DNA of 30,776 nucleotides. Source: a virus. Each line of letters opens with the position of its first letter. Position 1 is the stretch's first letter. The notes under the pieces are model-generated. The model was not told the origin of the DNA. It saw only the letters and a list, made by a program, of their open reading frames with translations, and made no database searches. The stretch lies in IMG/VR virus record IMGVR_UViG_3300044833_000057, positions 1 through 30,776 of that record; one strand, written 5' to 3'. A program made the position numbers and the translations under genes. Below, one piece after another: positions 1 through 7,050 of the stretch.

Positions 1-1275
1 GTTGTTAAACCCCCCGGGGGGGCCGCCCACGACGATGCGGAAGTTCTCCGCGTCGTATCGGGTGCGAGCGATCTGCGACGCCATCGCGCCGAACAGCGGG
101 ACATGCTGGTAGGGCGTCGGGTTCGAGACGGTGAACGTGACGTTGTTCGTGCCCGACCAGTTGGTGTACGGGTAGAGGCCGAGCAGGTGGCCTCCGTTCA
201 GAGTGCCGGCATTCGTGCCGTCGCCCTGCAGCACCTCGCCGTCGAGGAACTTGTTGTACGCGGACATGAGGTCGGTGGTGATGACCTCGTCGACGATGCC
301 GTGCGGTGACTGCTCGAGCAGCTGGATCGCGACATCCGAGTAGCCGCCGATCGTCTTCACGTTCGCCTGCACGAACGTGTCCGTCCAGTCCTGCGACGGG
401 AGACCGGCGTTATTAGCCTGCTGGTAGCCGATCGTGGTCAGCGTGCTGAGCTTCGGCACGTTGATCGAATTGGTGCCGGGCGGCACGTCCATCTGTCGCG
501 GCAGGCCAGCCGCGATCAGGTGCGCGCGCAGACCCGGGATGTACTCGTCGATCAGCCAGGTCGGCGGAATGAAATATCCGCCGAAGCCGTCCGTCGAGTT
601 GGGGGTGACCCTGCGCTCGAACGGGTTGAACATCAGCCCGTTGTTGCGGAGCTCGCGGAGCAGCAGGTCGACCTTCGGGTCCTGCATGCGCACGTTCATC
701 CTTGCCAGGAACTCCGTCTCGGCCTGCGCGATCTGCTGCTGCGCGCGCTGCTCCAGCATCTTCGCTCGCCGCGGCAGCTCGACCTCCATCTCCTGGGCGT
801 GCGCGATCAGCCTGGCCTGCGCCTGGTCGCGGGTACCGCCCGTCTGCAACGAGATCCCGGGACCGTGGACGAGTGCGAGGTCCCGGTAGTAGCTGAGGCC
901 CTCGTCGCCCCGGGTGTTATCGGAGCGGTAGGTGAGCGGCTGACTTGTGATCGAGAGTCGGGGCGATGCGCCGGCCGCCTCGTCGCGGCGGCGGACGATG
1001 TCCTCCTGCTGGCGGATGCGCTCGTCGAGTTCCTTGATCTCGGCTTCCCGCTGGTCCGAGTCGGCCTTGAACGTCGCCTCGGCGTTGCGGAACGTCTCGA
1101 CTTCCTGGTCGCGCTGCTCCTGCGGTAGTGCGGTGAACTCGTCGCCCTGTGAGCGCTCGTGGAACGTGCCGCGCTCAAGTTCGCGGGCGTGGATGACGTC
1201 GGCCCACGCGTCGACCTTGGTGATGCGCTGTTCGCGCAGCTTGTCGAGCAGGGTGGGCTCCGTGACAACGGTCAT
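1..1275 (-). CDS. second HK97-type major capsid protein (partial, cut at window edge)
   Basis: The frame is open from ATG at 1275 to base 1, giving 425 residues with no stop. The first ~125 residues are charged and helical, like the delta (scaffold) domain of HK97 capsid precursors. The shell domain then follows: 'TDGFGGYF', a 'PPGTNSINVP' segment and 'DVAIQLLEQSP'. The same landmarks sit at matching places in the capsid gene immediately upstream (1402-2631), so the two are paralogs. This copy has a longer N-terminus. The start has a purine-rich ribosome site (AAAGGGG) 5 bases before ATG. It may be the pentamer (vertex) or an alternative shell subunit. The C-terminus is not seen, so the final length is unknown. 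The family call is firm; the division of labour is inference. Confidence 0.88.
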   Translation of the reverse strand, partial: MTVVTEPTLLDKLREQRITKVDAWADVIHARELERGTFHERSQGDEFTALPQEQRDQEVETFRNAEATFKADSDQREAEIKELDERIRQQEDIVRRRDEAAGASPRLSITSQPLTYRSDNTRGDEGLSYYRDLALVHGPGISLQTGGTRDQAQARLIAHAQEMEVELPRRAKMLEQRAQQQIAQAETEFLARMNVRMQDPKVDLLLRELRNNGLMFNPFERRVTPNSTDGFGGYFIPPTWLIDEYIPGLRAHLIAAGLPRQMDVPPGTNSINVPKLSTLTTIGYQQANNAGLPSQDWTDTFVQANVKTIGGYSDVAIQLLEQSPHGIVDEVITTDLMSAYNKFLDGEVLQGDGTNAGTLNGGHLLGLYPYTNWSGTNNVTFTVSNPTPYQHVPLFGAMASQIARTRYDAENFRIVVGGPPGGFNN

Positions 1276-1401
1276 GGGGTCCCCTTTCGGGAGTGGTGGT
1301 GCTTATGGACTCCCGGGTGACACCCCACGTAGGAGGGCCGGCGCGGGCGAGAAGGCGGGCGGGTGGGTCCGCGCGTGGCGAACCCGGCGCGCCCAGGGAA
1401 A
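1276..1401 (-). promoter_or_regulatory. leader between the two capsid genes with SD hairpin
   Basis: This 126-bp gap is long for a module whose genes otherwise abut. Just before the second capsid start, CCC-GAAA-GGG (1282-1291) can fold into a short stem with a GNRA-type loop that holds part of the ribosome site. This could lower or tune translation of the second capsid gene relative to the first. No convincing promoter hexamers are seen in the gap. The regulatory role is inference. Confidence 0.3.
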
Positions 1402-2631
1402 TCAGTAGCCGGACTGGACGACCATGCCGGTACCGGACAGAACGCCGATACCGACGGCGCGGCGGCCGGTGATCGCGGCCACGTTGCAGTGCATCATCAG
1501 GCGTACACCGAGGGTGCCGCTCATGGGTTCGCGTGCGATCACGGTCTGTGGTTCGCCCTCGGCGAGGATGAGGTCGGTTGGCCGAAGGCACACGATCTGG
1601 TCCTGGTTCGCGGCGGCGCCCTGCGTTGCGGGGATCGCGTCGTCGAGGAACACGGGCCAGCCCATGACGCCGGACACGGGGTCTGGGGTGGTGTCGTCGT
1701 TGCCGAGATAGAACTGGGTCGAGAGCCCGAACGGCCGGGTGCCGGTGTCTTCGGAGCCCTGCAGGTACGCCCACCTCGCGGTGCGCATCAGCCAGCACTC
1801 CGGCGGCCGGTTGCGCGCATCGCCGAGCTGGGCGGCGAGCTTGCTCATCGCGGTCCACATCAGCGAGCCGGTCGGGCTCGCGGACGTGTAGGAAACGGCG
1901 GTGATGCCTGTCACGTTCGTCACGCCGAGCAACGCATCGGTGCCGCCGCCGGTGAGCAGCTGCAATTCGAGGCTGGCGGCGTACGCTTCGGCGAGATCCA
2001 TGAAGATCGCCCAGTCAAGGTGCGCGCCGGGCGGCGACTGCTCGAGCAGCTGGAGTGCGACGTCGGCCGTCCCGGCGAGCGGCACGACGCTCGACGTTGC
2101 GCTGCTGTCCGTGAAGTTCTGCTTCTCGACGGCCGCGTCGTCGATCGCGGGCTGCACTGCAGTGCCGGTGTTCAGGACGGGCACGTTGATGGACGACACT
2201 CCGGCCGGCAGCTGGAAGCGCGGCATCAGGCCGCCGAGGACGCGTCCGACACGGTTCGCGGTCGCGAACAGCTCGTTCAGCCACAATGGTGCGGAGAAGT
2301 AGCCGCCGTACCCGTCGGTCCGGTTCGGCTCGACGCGGTATTCGAGCCCGCCGGCCCTCATCCGCTGCCACGCGCGGGCCTCACGCTCCTCCCGGACCTG
2401 GTCCATCTGCTCGCGGTGACGACGCAGCCGGTCATTGCCGCCGACACTCGTGATCCGCCCCGTCTCCTGGGCGAGCAGATCCCGGTAGTAGCTGTGCCGT
2501 CCCATCGGCGAGTAGACGAGCTCGTCGCCGGTGGCCGTGCGGGCGAGCAGGTCAAGGTGGCCGGCAACCCGGCGTGCGATCTCATCGGGGTCCTGTGCGA
2601 GTAGTTCGAGGTGCGTGGTTTCGATCGCCAT
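1402..2631 (-). CDS. HK97-type major capsid protein
   Basis: A 409-residue protein of normal length for an HK97-fold capsid precursor. The first ~110 residues are charged and helical, the expected delta domain removed by the prohead protease. The shell part has 'TDGYGGYF' near residue 107, 'SSINVPVL' and 'DVALQLLEQSP', followed by the long E-loop/spine region. ATG at 2631 lies one base after the stop of the protease gene, so the two are translationally coupled. The order terminase, portal, protease, capsid is the classical HK97 order. The adjacent gene at 1-1275 is its paralog. The product assembles the procapsid shell. The fold call is confident; which of the two subunits forms hexamers is unknown. 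Confidence 0.93.
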   Translation of the reverse strand: MAIETTHLELLAQDPDEIARRVAGHLDLLARTATGDELVYSPMGRHSYYRDLLAQETGRITSVGGNDRLRRHREQMDQVREEREARAWQRMRAGGLEYRVEPNRTDGYGGYFSAPLWLNELFATANRVGRVLGGLMPRFQLPAGVSSINVPVLNTGTAVQPAIDDAAVEKQNFTDSSATSSVVPLAGTADVALQLLEQSPPGAHLDWAIFMDLAEAYAASLELQLLTGGGTDALLGVTNVTGITAVSYTSASPTGSLMWTAMSKLAAQLGDARNRPPECWLMRTARWAYLQGSEDTGTRPFGLSTQFYLGNDDTTPDPVSGVMGWPVFLDDAIPATQGAAANQDQIVCLRPTDLILAEGEPQTVIAREPMSGTLGVRLMMHCNVAAITGRRAVGIGVLSGTGMVVQSGY

Positions 2632-2632
2632 G

Positions 2633-3613
2633 TCAGGCCGCCCTCAGCGCGGCGAGCTTCTGTTTCGCGGAGGTCGTGTGATCCGGCAGCAACAAGTCGG
2701 TGATACTTGCCGGCCCCGGAGAGTTCTCCTGCTCATCCTCGTCCGTGTCGATGTCGAGGAGCTCCGCGAGCGTGTTATCGTGCTCGACACCGTCGGTCAG
2801 GTAGTCGTGGATCGGCTGGAGCGCGTCCATGGTGGCCTGGGAGATCGTCTTGCCCGCCCGCAGCTCGACGAGCGACGCGACGAACGTTTCGCGCGTGAGA
2901 CCGCGCGTGGCCATGAGCGCGACAGCGGACCGCATCGTCACAAGGCCCCCGGTATGAGGGTTCGCTCCGTAGTTGACCGGACTGACGTCGCCCTTGTCGA
3001 GGTTGACCTCGGTGATCCACCGGCGGTCGTAGTCCTCGTTCCATTCCTGCCGGGTGACCCGGAACGCAAAGCTCATCTCGTCAAGTGCGCCGTCGTCGAT
3101 CGCGGCGCGGAGGATCTGCACGTCGCTGCGTTGCGGGTTCAGCGTCGCTTCCACATAGAGGCCGGTGAGATCCTCGTTCAGCTTGAGCGTACCCGGCTTG
3201 GTACGCGCCATCGTGACGCCACCATGGTTGAGGAGGAACGCGACGTCAGCGTTGTCGCCGATCGTCTTCTGGAACGCGCCGCGGACGATCGACTCGGTCC
3301 ACGGGCCCAGCCAGTCCTCCATCTCGTAGGTGTGCGACTCGTCGTCGTGGTCGGCACACGTCACTGACGCGTACCCGGTGAACAGGAGGTTCGAGCCGCC
3401 ACTGCCGTTCGGCACCTCGCGCAGTTCGAACCCGGTGACCGGCATGCGGCGTGTTTCGCGGCAGCCGCGCATGTCGTCGCGGGCTGTACGGAGCTCGTCC
3501 GTCGCGCGCGGCCGTGACTGGGCCTCGTCGACTAGAGCGGTGTCGTGGTCGCCGTGCGCGATCTCCGCAGCAGCGCGGGCGGCGTCCGACCAGAGGGATG
3601 TGTCATCAGCCAT
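2633..3613 (-). CDS. HK97-family prohead (maturation) protease
   Basis: A 326-residue serine protease of the U35/HK97 prohead class, which trims scaffold domains of the capsid protein inside the procapsid. The family's His sits in 'LLNHGG' (H130) and the nucleophile Ser in 'DEMSFAFRV' (S181). 'GRxx.P'-like charged segments and 'GDVSPVNYGANP' further downstream are typical. Residues 1-58 precede the usual 'TGFELREV' domain start, so an internal start at the methionine of 'RMPVTGFE' is possible. A clear AGGAGG ribosome site 5 bases before ATG 3613 favours the long form. The ~100-residue acidic tail after the core may be a scaffold segment. It lies between portal and capsid as expected. Confidence 0.9.
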   Translation of the reverse strand: MADDTSLWSDAARAAAEIAHGDHDTALVDEAQSRPRATDELRTARDDMRGCRETRRMPVTGFELREVPNGSGGSNLLFTGYASVTCADHDDESHTYEMEDWLGPWTESIVRGAFQKTIGDNADVAFLLNHGGVTMARTKPGTLKLNEDLTGLYVEATLNPQRSDVQILRAAIDDGALDEMSFAFRVTRQEWNEDYDRRWITEVNLDKGDVSPVNYGANPHTGGLVTMRSAVALMATRGLTRETFVASLVELRAGKTISQATMDALQPIHDYLTDGVEHDNTLAELLDIDTDEDEQENSPGPASITDLLLPDHTTSAKQKLAALRAA

Positions 3614-3630: not shown

Positions 3631-4860
3631 CTAATCGGACTTGTCGCCACCGGCGCCACCGGTCGCGGTGGGTTTGATCGGCGAGGAGTTGAACGGCTGA
3701 TCGAACGCTTCAAGCACGGTGGACTGGGCCGGGTCGGTGACCGGCGGCAGCCCCTCAACCTTCCGGATCTCGGCCGACGACATCGCCCCAATGACCCTGG
3801 CGATCTGCCAGGCGGACCAGCGCTGGAGGGTGTCGCCCCGGAGCCGCTGGCTGAGGTCGAACATCACGAACTGCCTTGGCGGCAGCCATGAGCTGAGGAG
3901 GTCCTCCCACCGCGACAGCCAGATCAGGAGCGTGTTCCGGACGTAGCCGAGCTCCTGCTGCTCAATGCCCGCACCCCAAGAAGTGTCCTTGTCGACCATG
4001 CCGAGCATGTGCGGCGGCACCCGGTAGATCCTGCCCGAGATCACGCTCTCCGACAGCTGCATCTGCTCGAGAAACTGGGCGTCCGCGAGATTCATCGTGA
4101 TCGGCTGAAACGTCGTCCCGCCGGTCAGGAACCCGGGCGTGAACATGCCGTTGATCCCCTGGTGCGACGAGTTCCACGAGTCCTTCATCGCCTTCAACTC
4201 GTTATCCGGAAGATCGCCCGGGACCAGGAACACGCCGTCGGGCCGGGCGCTGTTCGCGAAGAACGCGCCGCTCGCTAGGTCCTGCGCCCGGGCGAGTCCG
4301 AGCACGTTCCGCATGTACTCGATCGGGTTCAGCCCGACCAGGCCCTCGGGGACCTGGAGCGCCATCGCCCTCGTCACGTTGTCCGGCGGGACGAGCTCGT
4401 TCCAGTAGCGGACCTCGATCAGACCGCTGTCCCGGTTGCGCCTGACCGTCACATGGTCGGGGTGGACGAGCTTCACCTGGTCCGGGTAGAGCTTCTCATC
4501 ACGGCCGAGGATGTCGCCGTACAGGTTGCCGCGGAGCAGCATCGACACGGTGCCCTGCGTGATGAAGTCGCGCTGCGTGACCTCAGACCACGGCTGCGCG
4601 ATCACCGGCGCCGGGTCGATCTCGATAGCCGTATCGCGGCCCGTCGCACGGTACTGACGCAGCGGCAACGTCGCAATCGACGACGAGATCAGATCCACCG
4701 ATCCGAACACCGCAGCCAGCTGGAGCGCGCTCTGCTCGGTGACCGTCACGCCGGCGGTAGCCCAGCCCGCGCCCGGCGGCGGCGGTGCTGTCGAGCCCCA
4801 TGGGAGGTAGGGGTTCGCGCTCCGGGTCTCGAACCGGCCGTCGGCGGTACGGATCTCCAC
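3631..4860 (-). CDS. phage portal protein (HK97 family)
   Basis: A 409-residue portal subunit. Portals form the dodecameric ring at one capsid vertex through which DNA enters. Family traits include 'ALQLAAVFGSVDLISSSIATLPLRQY' (given here only as a landmark near residue 45, usual in HK97 portals), 'LLLRGNLYGDI'-type sequence near 100, 'EYMRNVLGLA' and the late motif 'RIYRVPPHMLGMVD' followed by a Trp/Glu-rich helix. The start is GTG at 4860, with AAAGGTG upstream. A start at 4867 in another frame was rejected. The protein is of usual length and complete. It follows TerL and a small Sm-like gene and precedes the protease. Confidence 0.9.
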   Translation of the reverse strand: MEIRTADGRFETRSANPYLPWGSTAPPPPGAGWATAGVTVTEQSALQLAAVFGSVDLISSSIATLPLRQYRATGRDTAIEIDPAPVIAQPWSEVTQRDFITQGTVSMLLRGNLYGDILGRDEKLYPDQVKLVHPDHVTVRRNRDSGLIEVRYWNELVPPDNVTRAMALQVPEGLVGLNPIEYMRNVLGLARAQDLASGAFFANSARPDGVFLVPGDLPDNELKAMKDSWNSSHQGINGMFTPGFLTGGTTFQPITMNLADAQFLEQMQLSESVISGRIYRVPPHMLGMVDKDTSWGAGIEQQELGYVRNTLLIWLSRWEDLLSSWLPPRQFVMFDLSQRLRGDTLQRWSAWQIARVIGAMSSAEIRKVEGLPPVTDPAQSTVLEAFDQPFNSSPIKPTATGGAGGDKSD

Positions 4861-4869
4861 GCCGCACCT

Positions 4870-5106
4870 TTACCGGATGTGCTGGACGAGAATGACCTGC
4901 CCCTTGGGGACAAACGTCTCGCCAGCCATCTCAGTCGCCGCAACACCACCCGGCTTCAACATCCGGCCGTGCCGCAACGCCACGCCCGCAACACCGTCGT
5001 CGCGATCCTTATAGACCCGGATCAGAATGCCCTCAATCGAGTCGGAATCCTTGAGATGCAGCAGGACCGTCCGGCCCTCCATCTGCTCGAGCCACGATCG
5101 CCGCAT
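4870..5106 (-). CDS. small Sm/LSm-like beta-barrel protein, function unknown
   Basis: A 78-residue protein starting at ATG 5106 behind a good GGAGGTGACGG ribosome site. The pattern 'GRTVLLHLKDSDSIEGIL.RVYKD' with 'FVPKGQVILVQHI' at the end resembles the strand arrangement of an Sm-like barrel: a short N-terminal helix, a bent beta-sheet with a Gly-rich turn, and a final 'I.V..I' strand. This fold is inferred from pattern only. It lies between TerL and portal, a position where phages often carry a small protein of unknown role. It could be a packaging accessory or a regulator of the head operon. Confidence 0.7.
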   Translation of the reverse strand: MRRSWLEQMEGRTVLLHLKDSDSIEGILIRVYKDRDDGVAGVALRHGRMLKPGGVAATEMAGETFVPKGQVILVQHIR

Positions 5107-5121
5107 CCGTCACCTCCCGCC

Positions 5122-6549
5122 CTACAGGTCGTTGAAGCTGACGAACCGGGACTTGGCCGGCTTTTTCTGCGCACCCCACAGCGCGAGCGTGATCGCGACC
5201 AGTGGAGAGATGTCGACGCCGGAGTTCTTCCGGCCCCACGCCCACAAGCCGTCGCCGACCGGGCGCTTCACCGCCCCATCGATCGCGGCCGTCACCTCTG
5301 GCGTCCCGAGATGGTGGACCTGCCGCTGGTCGACCGCGTCGAACAGGATGCCGCACGCCTGCCCATGCTCATTCGAGTTGACCGGGATCGCATCAACCCT
5401 CAGGCCCACAAGGTCCGGCAGCAGTGATCCTGCGGGGCCCGACGGGTCGCAGATCACCGCCGACGGATGGTGGCGTTCAACGAGTCGCGCGACCTCCTTC
5501 GCCACCCATCCGGTGCCGCGGCCCTGCCTGATGACCTCGACGTGAAACTTGCCGTCCTTGCGCCGGCCTGCAGCAGCGATCGACGATGCGGAACGGTCCG
5601 GCGTCACGTCAAACGACAGGCACACCGGGTCCATCGCCCGAGACTCGAAGTCAACGAGCTCGATCCACGCAGCCACCGGGATTACCGGATCGACCGACCC
5701 AGCCTTCCACCGGTTCAGGTAGGCGCGCTCAAACTCGTTCAGCGGCATCGACGCGAAATCAGCCCGAATAACCTCGACCGTCTGCGTGATCCCCAAAGCC
5801 GGCATACACGACCACCAGGTCTCCTCGGCGGCCGGGTCAGCATCCTCCGGTGGCGACCACTCGAAGTAGCAAACGCCCGACCGAGCGCCAGAAGCGGCCA
5901 GCTCCCGGCCGTGCTCGACCTTCCCCAACAGGTACGGCGACTCATCCGGCGTCCCGGCCGTCGAGATCACCCAGAACTGGGCGCCGCGGATCGTACTCAT
6001 CGCCGGCTTCAACGCCTGCTCGATACGCGCGTCCGGCTGAGCAAACGCCTCATCAACCGTCGCCTGGTGGATCGTGCCGCCATGGCCCGACTTTTTCACC
6101 GTCGCGACCAGCCCCGCATGCGACCCGTTCTTGAACTTCAACGCCTCATGGCCGTTTGTCATCCGCGGCTCAAACAAGCCGCGCCTCTTGAACGACGAAT
6201 CCTCCAGCGCCGGCAGCCAGTCATCGACCAGCTTCTTCCGAGCATCCGACCCTGTCTGCGCCGTATACCGGATGTTCTGCCGCGGCGCCGAAAGGGCGCG
6301 CGTGAAAATGTTCGCCAGCACCAGCGTCGTCTTCCCCGACTGGCGCGGCACCGTCAACCCCACCTCGCGGTACGCGAGCTTGCCGGTCGCCGGATCAACC
6401 TCCAGCGCCACATCCGCGACAAACTGCTGCCACGGCATGAAAGGCGTACCGAGCTCCGCCGCAACCCTGGCAGCCGCAGCCCCGTACGTCTTCCGGTCAG
6501 GCGACCGCGCTGTTGCCCACCTCGGCGAACAGGTCCGCGACGAACTCAT
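5122..6549 (-). CDS. terL: terminase large subunit
   Basis: The packaging motor ATPase and headful/cos nuclease. Walker A is 'PRQSGKTT' (about residues 68-75 from the chosen start) and Walker B is 'QATVDEAF'. The C-terminal RNase-H-like nuclease has Asp in 'LSFDVTPDRS', 'ICDPSGP' and 'SGVDISPL'. The length is about 475 residues, usual for the family. The frame is open to 6660, but the extra 37 residues are Arg/Ser-rich and are the antisense-like shadow of TerS. ATG 6549, preceded by GGAAG and overlapping the TerS end by 53 bases, is therefore taken as the start. It sits in the order HNH, TerS, TerL, portal. Confidence 0.92.
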   Translation of the reverse strand: MSSSRTCSPRWATARSPDRKTYGAAAARVAAELGTPFMPWQQFVADVALEVDPATGKLAYREVGLTVPRQSGKTTLVLANIFTRALSAPRQNIRYTAQTGSDARKKLVDDWLPALEDSSFKRRGLFEPRMTNGHEALKFKNGSHAGLVATVKKSGHGGTIHQATVDEAFAQPDARIEQALKPAMSTIRGAQFWVISTAGTPDESPYLLGKVEHGRELAASGARSGVCYFEWSPPEDADPAAEETWWSCMPALGITQTVEVIRADFASMPLNEFERAYLNRWKAGSVDPVIPVAAWIELVDFESRAMDPVCLSFDVTPDRSASSIAAAGRRKDGKFHVEVIRQGRGTGWVAKEVARLVERHHPSAVICDPSGPAGSLLPDLVGLRVDAIPVNSNEHGQACGILFDAVDQRQVHHLGTPEVTAAIDGAVKRPVGDGLWAWGRKNSGVDISPLVAITLALWGAQKKPAKSRFVSFNDL

Positions 6550-6757
6550 CGGCTTCCGTGACACCCTCGACGATCGACTTGACAAGCTCACGCAGCTCCT
6601 TCGACAGCGGCGCCATCGCCGCAACCACCGACCCGTTCGTCGAACCGCGGCTCGCGTCAAACGTCACCGCCAAGCCACGCGCCATCTCCGCGTACGTTTC
6701 GCCCGCCTCGTCAAGCACCAGCGTCTCGAGCAACGCCTCAAGCTTCTCGCCTACCAC
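6497..6757 (-). CDS. terS: probable terminase small subunit
   Basis: An 86-residue, mainly helical acidic protein starting at GTG 6757, which overlaps the HNH stop. It contains 'AGETYAEMARGLAVTFD' and a second helix pair 'LSKELRELVKSIVEG'. Small terminases recognise the packaging site and stimulate TerL. This one is shorter than most and shows no obvious HTH. The call therefore rests mainly on position between an HNH gene and TerL, and on resemblance to short actinophage TerS proteins. An alternative is an unrelated accessory protein. Confidence 0.65.
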   Translation of the reverse strand: MVGEKLEALLETLVLDEAGETYAEMARGLAVTFDASRGSTNGSVVAAMAPLSKELRELVKSIVEGVTEADEFVADLFAEVGNSAVA

Positions 6758-7050
6758 TCGCGCGACACCCGCCTCGCCGGCTGCCGCCGACCACTCCCGC
6801 GACGCGAGTTGCAGCCGTAATGCACCGCGCGAAGATTCGCATCATCAAGCACGAGCATGCTCCGCGTCTCCGCATCAACCCGGCTCAACGGGATCACATG
6901 ATCCACCGACGGCGACCACTTCGACCGAGCCGGCGCATCGAAGTCCAACGGCCGGTAGCAAACCAGGCAGACCGACGCGCCAGCGAGAACCTCTGCGCGC
7001 TTTGCCTTCCACGCCGGCGACCTAGCCGAAAACCGCGACACCGCGACCAT
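6751..7050 (-). CDS. HNH endonuclease next to the terminase
   Basis: A 99-residue HNH protein. 'CLVC' supplies the first zinc pair, 'SVDHVIPLSR' the catalytic His with its Pro, 'DDANLRAVHYGCN' the Asn and final His, and 'GCNSRRG' the end of the beta-beta-alpha metal fold. HNH proteins directly upstream of TerS/TerL (as HK97 gp74) are known to help terminase cut the packaging site. The same role is inferred here. ATG 7050 gives the usual 'ARSPAWKAKRAEVLAG' N-terminal helix. The stop overlaps the TerS GTG. Confidence 0.9.
   Translation of the reverse strand: MVAVSRFSARSPAWKAKRAEVLAGASVCLVCYRPLDFDAPARSKWSPSVDHVIPLSRVDAETRSMLVLDDANLRAVHYGCNSRRGSGRRQPARRVSREW

What the first reader, a model, noticed from the sequence alone, without database searches (positions are those of the whole stretch)
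1..2631. Two homologous major capsid genes in tandem
Genes 1402-2631 and <1-1275 share several landmarks (TDGxGGYF, SINVP, QLLEQSP) in order but have different delta domains. Most HK97-type phages have one. Separate hexamer and vertex subunits exist in a few phages (T4 gp23/gp24). A doubled HK97-type gene behind a single protease would be a notable variant.
Basis: partly seen in the sequence, partly recalled or inferred. Interest (0 to 1): 0.65.

Follow-up and report, generated by a model that had tools for sequence, protein, structure and literature searches.

The report
Phage heads with two capsid proteins
This virus fragment really carries two related but distinct shell-protein genes side by side, a pairing kept in a whole uncultured phage lineage, which suggests that the two proteins divide the work of building the head, as is known from phage T4.

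Summary
On the minus strand, behind TerL, portal and one S78 protease, lie two HK97-type major capsid genes: MCP-A (2631-1402, 409 aa, complete) and MCP-B (1275 to <1, cut by the contig end). They share 37% over 189 aa (E 1e-30), and the pair is not an oddity of this contig. Of 27 contigs with an A-type gene, 22 carry B next downstream; four of the other five end before B could be seen and one (L007) is an odd contig. A and B each form a clade (100/100), diverge in parallel (Mantel r 0.89), are under purifying selection, and occur exactly once each in 11 of 11 records searched. No named phage in the collection has two.

The copies differ clearly. B keeps the long N-terminal coiled-coil (delta) region of ordinary single capsid proteins; A has lost or replaced it. 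B also has a conserved structured 5' leader and groups with single-copy relatives; A diverges faster. I read B as the main lattice subunit and A as a specialised, probably vertex, subunit relying on B's scaffold, as T4 gp24 relates to gp23. Position in the virion is inferred. A simple sister duplication is marginally rejected (AU p 0.043).

The parts
1402..2631 (-). MCP-A: HK97-type capsid protein, 409 aa, short N-terminal region (104 residues before TDGYGGYF), starts directly after the protease stop
   Evidence: AlphaFold model mean pLDDT 75.7, HK97-fold matches
1..1275 (-). MCP-B: HK97-type capsid protein, N-terminal 425 aa present, C-terminal ~145 aa beyond the contig end; long N-terminal coiled-coil (delta-like) region
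   Evidence: model of the close relative L002 B, mean pLDDT 74.9, HK97-fold matches
1281..1320 (-). Conserved structured 5' leader of MCP-B: stem CGGGAG/CTCCCG directly followed by the GAAAGG ribosome-binding site
   Evidence: model hit 39.2 bits (the window is one of the 12 rows the model was built from); covariation counts
2633..3613 (-). Head maturation protease, Peptidase_S78 (PF04586)
   Evidence: 84.3 bits, E 1.3e-23
3631..4860 (-). Portal protein (PF04860)
   Evidence: 224 bits, E 3.5e-66
4870..5106 (-). Small ORF (78 aa) between TerL and portal, function unassigned
5122..6660 (-). Terminase large subunit (phrog_9)
   Evidence: 246.7 bits, E 1.4e-72; Terminase_6N
6751..7050 (-). Likely HNH endonuclease of the packaging module (under the Pfam cut-off)
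   Evidence: 18.7 bits against cut-off 21.4

Best explanation
A lineage of uncultured tailed phages builds its head from two HK97-fold subunits encoded side by side. MCP-B is the conventional subunit: it carries the long coiled-coil delta region that acts as built-in scaffold in single-MCP relatives, and it makes the hexamer lattice. MCP-A is a specialised second subunit that has lost that coiled coil, co-assembles with B under the direction of B's scaffold, is matured by the same single S78 protease, and most likely forms the 11 non-portal vertices (pentamers), as gp24 does beside gp23 in T4. Shown here: two intact conserved capsid genes, same operon order, separate clades, parallel divergence, purifying selection, different N-terminal regions, HK97 fold for both. 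Inferred: that both are in the virion, that A sits at the vertices, that A needs B's delta region.
For: Homology and fold of both. Tandem A-B order in 22 of 27 contigs with an A-type gene; in 4 of the other 5 the contig ends too early to tell. TerL, portal and protease precede A in the same order wherever the contig reaches that far and a match was found, except L007. 11 of 11 records searched hold one A and one B and no third copy. A: 17 rows, one clade, 100/100; B: 16 rows, one clade, 100/100. A and B distances over 15 contigs correlate, Mantel r 0.891, 0 of 5000 shuffles. dN/dS 0.27-0.36 in 6 of 9 A pairs and 0.17-0.42 in 5 of 7 B pairs; the rest gave no ratio. Residues before the conserved SYFxDL motif: B 116-147 (13 of 14 measured), single MCPs 75-140 (22 of 24), A 19-48 in 11 of 15 measured and 137-145 in 3 that carry an unrelated added domain; the fifteenth, L012, also has the added domain but the script mis-hit its motif. 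T4 parallel: the protease removes 65 residues from gp23 but only 10 from the vertex protein gp24 (PMC9958956, passages). A is less conserved than B in all 12 pairs with A identity above 60%, and in 67 of 105 pairs overall. The structured leader is found before B and not before A.
Against: No virion, proteomic or cryo-EM data for any member. The ribosome-binding-site test does not clearly separate the two: with a short anti-SD, 7 of 14 and 10 of 15 pairs favour B (p 0.63 and 0.93); only a longer actinobacterial anti-SD, chosen after the first result, favours B (11 of 15, p 0.018). Neither structure search favours pentamer over hexamer chains in either model. A+B as sister clades is marginally rejected (AU p 0.043), so a plain gp24-style duplication is not shown. 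One chromosome (Paraconexibacter) has an A-type gene with no B, although that element also lacks a detectable portal.
Confidence: 0.5

Rival explanations
1. Mixed lattice: A and B both enter the hexamers, or A replaces B in a subset of hexamers, so A adjusts head size or stability rather than marking the vertices.
For: A is an intact HK97-fold protein under purifying selection and co-inherited with B, which fits any obligate structural partner. Two-component HK97-fold shells are in the PDB (titles 9bje, 9bix).
Against: Lack of the scaffold coiled coil, faster divergence and lack of the MCP leader in A fit a minor specialised subunit better than an equal partner; none of these excludes it.
Confidence: 0.22
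2. Reversed roles: A is the hexamer subunit, and B, with the long delta region, forms the vertices or nucleates assembly at the portal.
For: A is encoded first, directly behind the protease; role assignment from sequence is indirect.
Against: B keeps what single-copy MCPs have (long coiled-coil N-terminus) and groups with a set of them at 100/93; T4's vertex protein has the short propeptide (PMC9958956).
Confidence: 0.08
3. A is not a shell subunit of the mature virion: it is an assembly factor, a decoy or size-switching subunit, or is used in an alternative small particle.
For: No virion data; the only A-type gene without B sits in a 16-kb element with helicase, HNH, protease remnant and integrase but no detectable portal, as a satellite or remnant would.
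Against: A lies in the head operon between protease and B in every contig long enough, L007 excepted, and keeps the full HK97 fold.
Confidence: 0.12
4. Artefact or decaying duplicate: an assembly error or a recent pseudogene copy.
For: The window ends inside B at a homopolymer-rich run, and the last residues match no relative.
Against: 22 contigs carry the same tandem; A-B identity within a contig is only 28-40%, so the pair is old; both are under purifying selection.
Confidence: 0.02

Closest known systems
T4 gp23 / gp24 (major capsid and vertex protein)
   Same: Two paralogous HK97-fold shell proteins in one phage, one protease maturing both, and a much shorter N-terminal propeptide on the vertex protein (10 against 65 residues; PMC9958956, passages read)
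   Different: Here both genes sit in an HK97-type operon with an S78 protease, the delta-bearing copy has a coiled coil like that of single-MCP relatives, and neither profile found a T4 protein among its PDB sequence hits. A sister duplication is not supported.
Single MCPs of cluster J and related mycobacteriophages (Courthouse, MiaZeal, Typha, Nadezda; the cluster name is recalled)
   Same: Closest named relatives of both A (31-32%) and B (29% over most of its length, up to 45% in the core) by tblastn
   Different: 57 of 57 matching records have one place each for either query; they have one MCP
HK97 gp5
   Same: Best or near-best solved match for both models (1ohg, 2ft1, 2fs3); delta-type scaffold fused to the MCP
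   Different: One gene makes both pentamers and hexamers in HK97 (recalled)
Family 2B two-component encapsulins (9bje, 9bix, Streptomyces lydicus)
   Same: Two different HK97-fold shell proteins in one shell (entry titles)
   Different: Cellular compartments (recalled); here the genes lie in a terminase-portal-protease phage operon

Membership tests
HK97-type phage major capsid protein (PF05065 / phrog_2263) | Sequence profile over cut-off | tested here: met
   A 34.8 and B 28.8 bits against 24.2; phrog_2263 E 1.3e-24 and 1.2e-20
HK97-type phage major capsid protein (PF05065 / phrog_2263) | HK97 fold | tested here: met
   A: Z 19.9 to 1ohg_A, rmsd 5.5, 259 aligned; B of L002: Z 17.8, rmsd 5.0, 255 aligned
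HK97-type phage major capsid protein (PF05065 / phrog_2263) | Lies in a terminase-portal-protease operon | tested here: met
   same order in relatives, L007 excepted
HK97-type phage major capsid protein (PF05065 / phrog_2263) | N-terminal delta region removed by the protease | not testable with these tools
   Needs N-terminal sequencing or mass spectrometry of virions
T4-type dedicated vertex subunit (gp24-like) for MCP-A | Second homologue of the MCP in the same genome | tested here: met
T4-type dedicated vertex subunit (gp24-like) for MCP-A | Much shorter N-terminal propeptide than the MCP | tested here: met
   Length only: A 73-105 residues before the GGYF motif in 12 of 16 (183-199 in 4 with an added domain), B 201-242 in 14 of 14; cleavage itself untested
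T4-type dedicated vertex subunit (gp24-like) for MCP-A | Origin by duplication of the MCP of the same lineage | tested here: inconclusive
   A and B each one clade, but A+B together AU p 0.043
T4-type dedicated vertex subunit (gp24-like) for MCP-A | Sequence relationship to gp24 itself | tested here: inconclusive
   PDB profile search with A lists 7 sequences, six HK97-type gp5 entries and one other capsid protein, none named gp24
T4-type dedicated vertex subunit (gp24-like) for MCP-A | Occupies the pentameric vertices, 55 copies | not testable with these tools
   Needs virion cryo-EM or quantitative proteomics
Two-component family 2B encapsulin | Cellular compartment without phage packaging genes | tested here: not met
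   TerL, portal and protease adjacent

The most novel reading that the evidence does not exclude
An independent, non-T4 solution for a two-protein head: one subunit (B) carries the scaffold for the whole shell, the other (A) has shed it and depends on B in trans, and a structured RNA leader specific to the B gene helps set the A:B ratio. Because A and B are not clearly sister copies, the pair may have arisen by joining capsid genes of two lineages rather than by simple duplication.
Probability: 0.25. Interest if true: 0.75.

Novelty: new variant of a known kind. Interest (0 to 1): 0.58.

Why it matters
How one HK97-fold protein makes both pentamers and hexamers is a central question of head assembly. 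A natural system in which the job is split between two small HK97-type proteins behind an S78 protease, with single-copy relatives for comparison, would make it directly testable outside the large T4 head. It also shows that capsid genes in metagenomic phages cannot be assumed to be single-copy markers, and it offers a two-component shell with a scaffold on only one part.

Tried and rejected
Ribosome-binding-site strength as a proxy for copy number: no difference with a short anti-SD (7 of 14, 10 of 15, p 0.93); B stronger with a longer actinobacterial anti-SD (11 of 15, p 0.018). I chose that anti-SD after seeing the first result, so I give it little weight.

Structure comparison as a test of pentamer against hexamer use: both models match HK97 pentamer (G, recalled labelling) and hexamer chains alike. 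T=1 encapsulins rank a little higher for A than for B, but within ties; not used.

Sigma-70 promoter and terminator scan of 1200-2800: none found, as expected by chance.

First relative searches with single proteins found none for A and 5 loci for B; alignment queries found 71 and 21 loci. They rest on two short peptide patterns each, so the counts are lower bounds. Genome contigs with B found nothing, with A one locus; L091's MCP found nothing in viral contigs. Of 399 genomes of the class of the Paraconexibacter genome, 17 matched the A profile; apart from that genome itself, the five best were single MCPs nearer the ordinary kind.

Literature: six searches (a seventh was for T4) listed no paper whose title or abstract start describes tandem HK97 capsid genes of this kind. 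Only titles, abstract starts and, for five papers, passages were seen; subscription journals are mostly not held.

Rows dropped: before the tree near-duplicates and partial rows (L013-L017, L019, L023, L025, L030, L040, L046, L048, L049, L066-L068, L071-L074, L083, L084, L087), L038, L006's first exon and L008's partial B; L088-L090, scored nearer A by a crude ratio but single-copy and remote, were dropped. L004 B was cut by 60 residues (frame change near its end) and window B by 8.

One search used a wrongly recalled family accession (a holin) and tells nothing.

Full report
The window is an IMG/VR virus record of 30,776 bases, probably a fragment. Its left end holds a minus-strand head module: HNH-like ORF, TerL, a small ORF, portal, S78 protease, then two capsid genes. 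MCP-A (1402-2631) starts directly after the protease stop. MCP-B (1-1275) starts 126 bases after A and runs off the record. Both pass Pfam's Phage_capsid cut-off, have phrog_2263 as best PHROG and match each other at 37% over 189 residues, E 1e-30.

The pair is a conserved arrangement. Profile searches over the fetched IMG/VR loci (typed) give 27 contigs, window included, with an A-type gene. On 22 of them a B-type gene follows on the same strand. The other five are L014, L068 and L071, where the contig ends in or right after A; L023, with 904 bases left while its relative L022 has a 1,384-base gap; and L007. L007 has TerL, then A, then the start of a protease, with no portal hit; it is either a chimera or a real exception. 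One more contig (L003) begins inside B. Several contigs are near-copies (L012-L017, L018/L019, L024/L025), so the tandem stands for about 16 distinct lineages. Where a contig reaches far enough upstream and the window's proteins find a match, protease, portal and TerL precede A as in the window. A profile search of 11 whole records finds one A and one B in each, and no third copy.

In a tree of 69 capsid cores (TDGxGGYF to the end), 17 A rows form one clade and 16 B rows another, both with 100/100 support, apart from 36 single-copy relatives. B groups with a subset of the single-copy proteins at 100/93. Holding A and B together as one clade costs 6.8 log units (AU p 0.043). So a tandem duplication inside this lineage is not shown: either the duplication is older than the split of the single-copy relatives, or the second gene came from elsewhere, or long branches mislead. 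Over 15 contigs the A and B distances correlate strongly (Mantel r 0.891, 0 of 5000 shuffles), so the two have travelled together. Within contigs A and B share 28-40%, so the pair is old. dN/dS was 0.27-0.36 for 6 of 9 A pairs and 0.17-0.42 for 5 of 7 B pairs, the rest giving no ratio; synonymous distances are high, so these are rough, but both genes are clearly constrained.

The clearest difference is at the N-terminus. Before the TDGxGGYF motif B has 201-242 residues (14 rows), single MCPs 152-225 (24 rows), A 73-105 in 12 of 16 rows. What is missing in A is the first ~100 residues, which AlphaFold models as long helices in B (residues 9-104 of L002 B, pLDDT about 80-90) and which single MCPs carry as well (sequences). 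In four A proteins (L004, L006, L012, L026) an unrelated domain stands there instead; of the two tested, both match phrog_760 and one also matches a head-maturation-protease family weakly. In HK97-type phages that N-terminal region is the built-in scaffold (established knowledge), so A probably cannot organise a shell by itself.

Both models have the HK97 fold: A (mean pLDDT 75.7) Z 19.9 to mature HK97 gp5, B (74.9) Z 17.8. PDB sequence profiles agree. The folds do not say which protein sits at the vertices.

The most likely mechanism is thus division of labour. The assignment B = hexamers, A = vertices rests on four indirect points. B keeps the features of single MCPs. A has the shortened propeptide, as T4 gp24 does (10 against 65 residues removed; PMC9958956, passages; 55 against 960 copies, PMC5694885, passages). 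A is the less conserved copy in all 12 of the closest pairs and in 67 of 105 overall. And B alone has the conserved leader. Against it stand the mixed ribosome-binding-site results, the absence of virion data, and the unsettled origin. I put this reading at 0.5.

The B leader deserves its own mention. In 12 aligned leaders a stem (CGGGAG/CTCCCG in the window) ends directly at the GAAAGG ribosome-binding site. Three of its six pairs show changes on both sides, 4 of 500 shuffles reach the covariation score, and all six slid versions score lower; the segment cut for L008 was partly off register in that alignment, and L004, L005, L006 and L012, where the stem was weak or not seen by eye, were not among the 12. 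A model built from it and run over 58 sources gives 15 hits at E up to 1: 13 lie before B genes, one weak one (L045, E 0.22) before a single MCP, one (L082) elsewhere, none before A. Twelve of the 13 come from rows used to build the model; only L006 is independent (E 0.77). A short consensus box is in 10 of 18 B leaders and 0 of 17 A leaders. Rfam lists no family there in the six loci scanned. This is suggestive, not proof, of a translational control element.

The one A-type gene in a named organism lies in Paraconexibacter antarcticus (Solirubrobacterales), in an element of about 16 kb between a tRNA-Arg and an integrase, with a helicase, an HNH gene, a shortened S78 protease, the capsid gene and an NlpC/P60 tail-like protein. 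No B and no portal were found in that genome. It falls in the A clade at 100/100, with unresolved place inside. It reads as a remnant or satellite, so it neither supports nor overturns the pairing; it hints that hosts of this lineage are actinobacteria.

Among 50,697 named phage records, 57 match A and 57 match B by tblastn, each with a single place. Six literature searches listed nothing describing such a pair. The kind (two HK97-fold shell subunits) is known from T4; this lineage, its operon and its scaffold asymmetry make it a new variant.

Noticed in passing
window 1281-1320 (-); L002 2491-2528; L011 7092-7131; L022 2518-2556; L027 7250-7301; L070 8197-8235: Conserved stem directly before the ribosome-binding site of MCP-B, with changes on both sides in 3 of 6 pairs; not found before MCP-A
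   Followed up: partly
L006 8639-8867: Group I intron-like insert (RF00028, 42.3 bits, E 1.2e-9, under the curated cut-off of 50) splitting MCP-B at the TDGYGG/YF codons
   Followed up: partly
L038 about 5530-5800: A single-copy MCP split at the same motif by an insert that looks like the L006 intron by eye, though Rfam reports no match
   Followed up: partly
L111 15036 to L112 10881 (Paraconexibacter antarcticus): About 16-kb integrated element with an A-type capsid gene and shortened protease; no B copy or portal found in the genome; possible satellite or prophage remnant
   Followed up: partly
L004 4669-5100; L006 6300-6750; also A of L012 and L026: Some A proteins carry an added N-terminal domain matching phrog_760 (two tested) and, for L006, weakly a head-maturation-protease family, as if moved from the protease to the capsid gene
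   Followed up: partly
L009 6024-6656; L018 9087-9731: A ~210 aa protein that looks alike in both loci follows MCP-B, no PHROG match; candidate head decoration protein
   Followed up: no
L007 1-4430: Gene order TerL - MCP-A - protease with no portal match; chimeric contig or a real rearrangement
   Followed up: partly
L027 7094-7164: A tRNA gene sits between MCP-A and MCP-B
   Followed up: no
window 1-20 (-): The last codons of MCP-B at the contig edge match no relative and lie by a GGCCCCCCCGGGGGG run; likely end-of-contig error
   Followed up: partly
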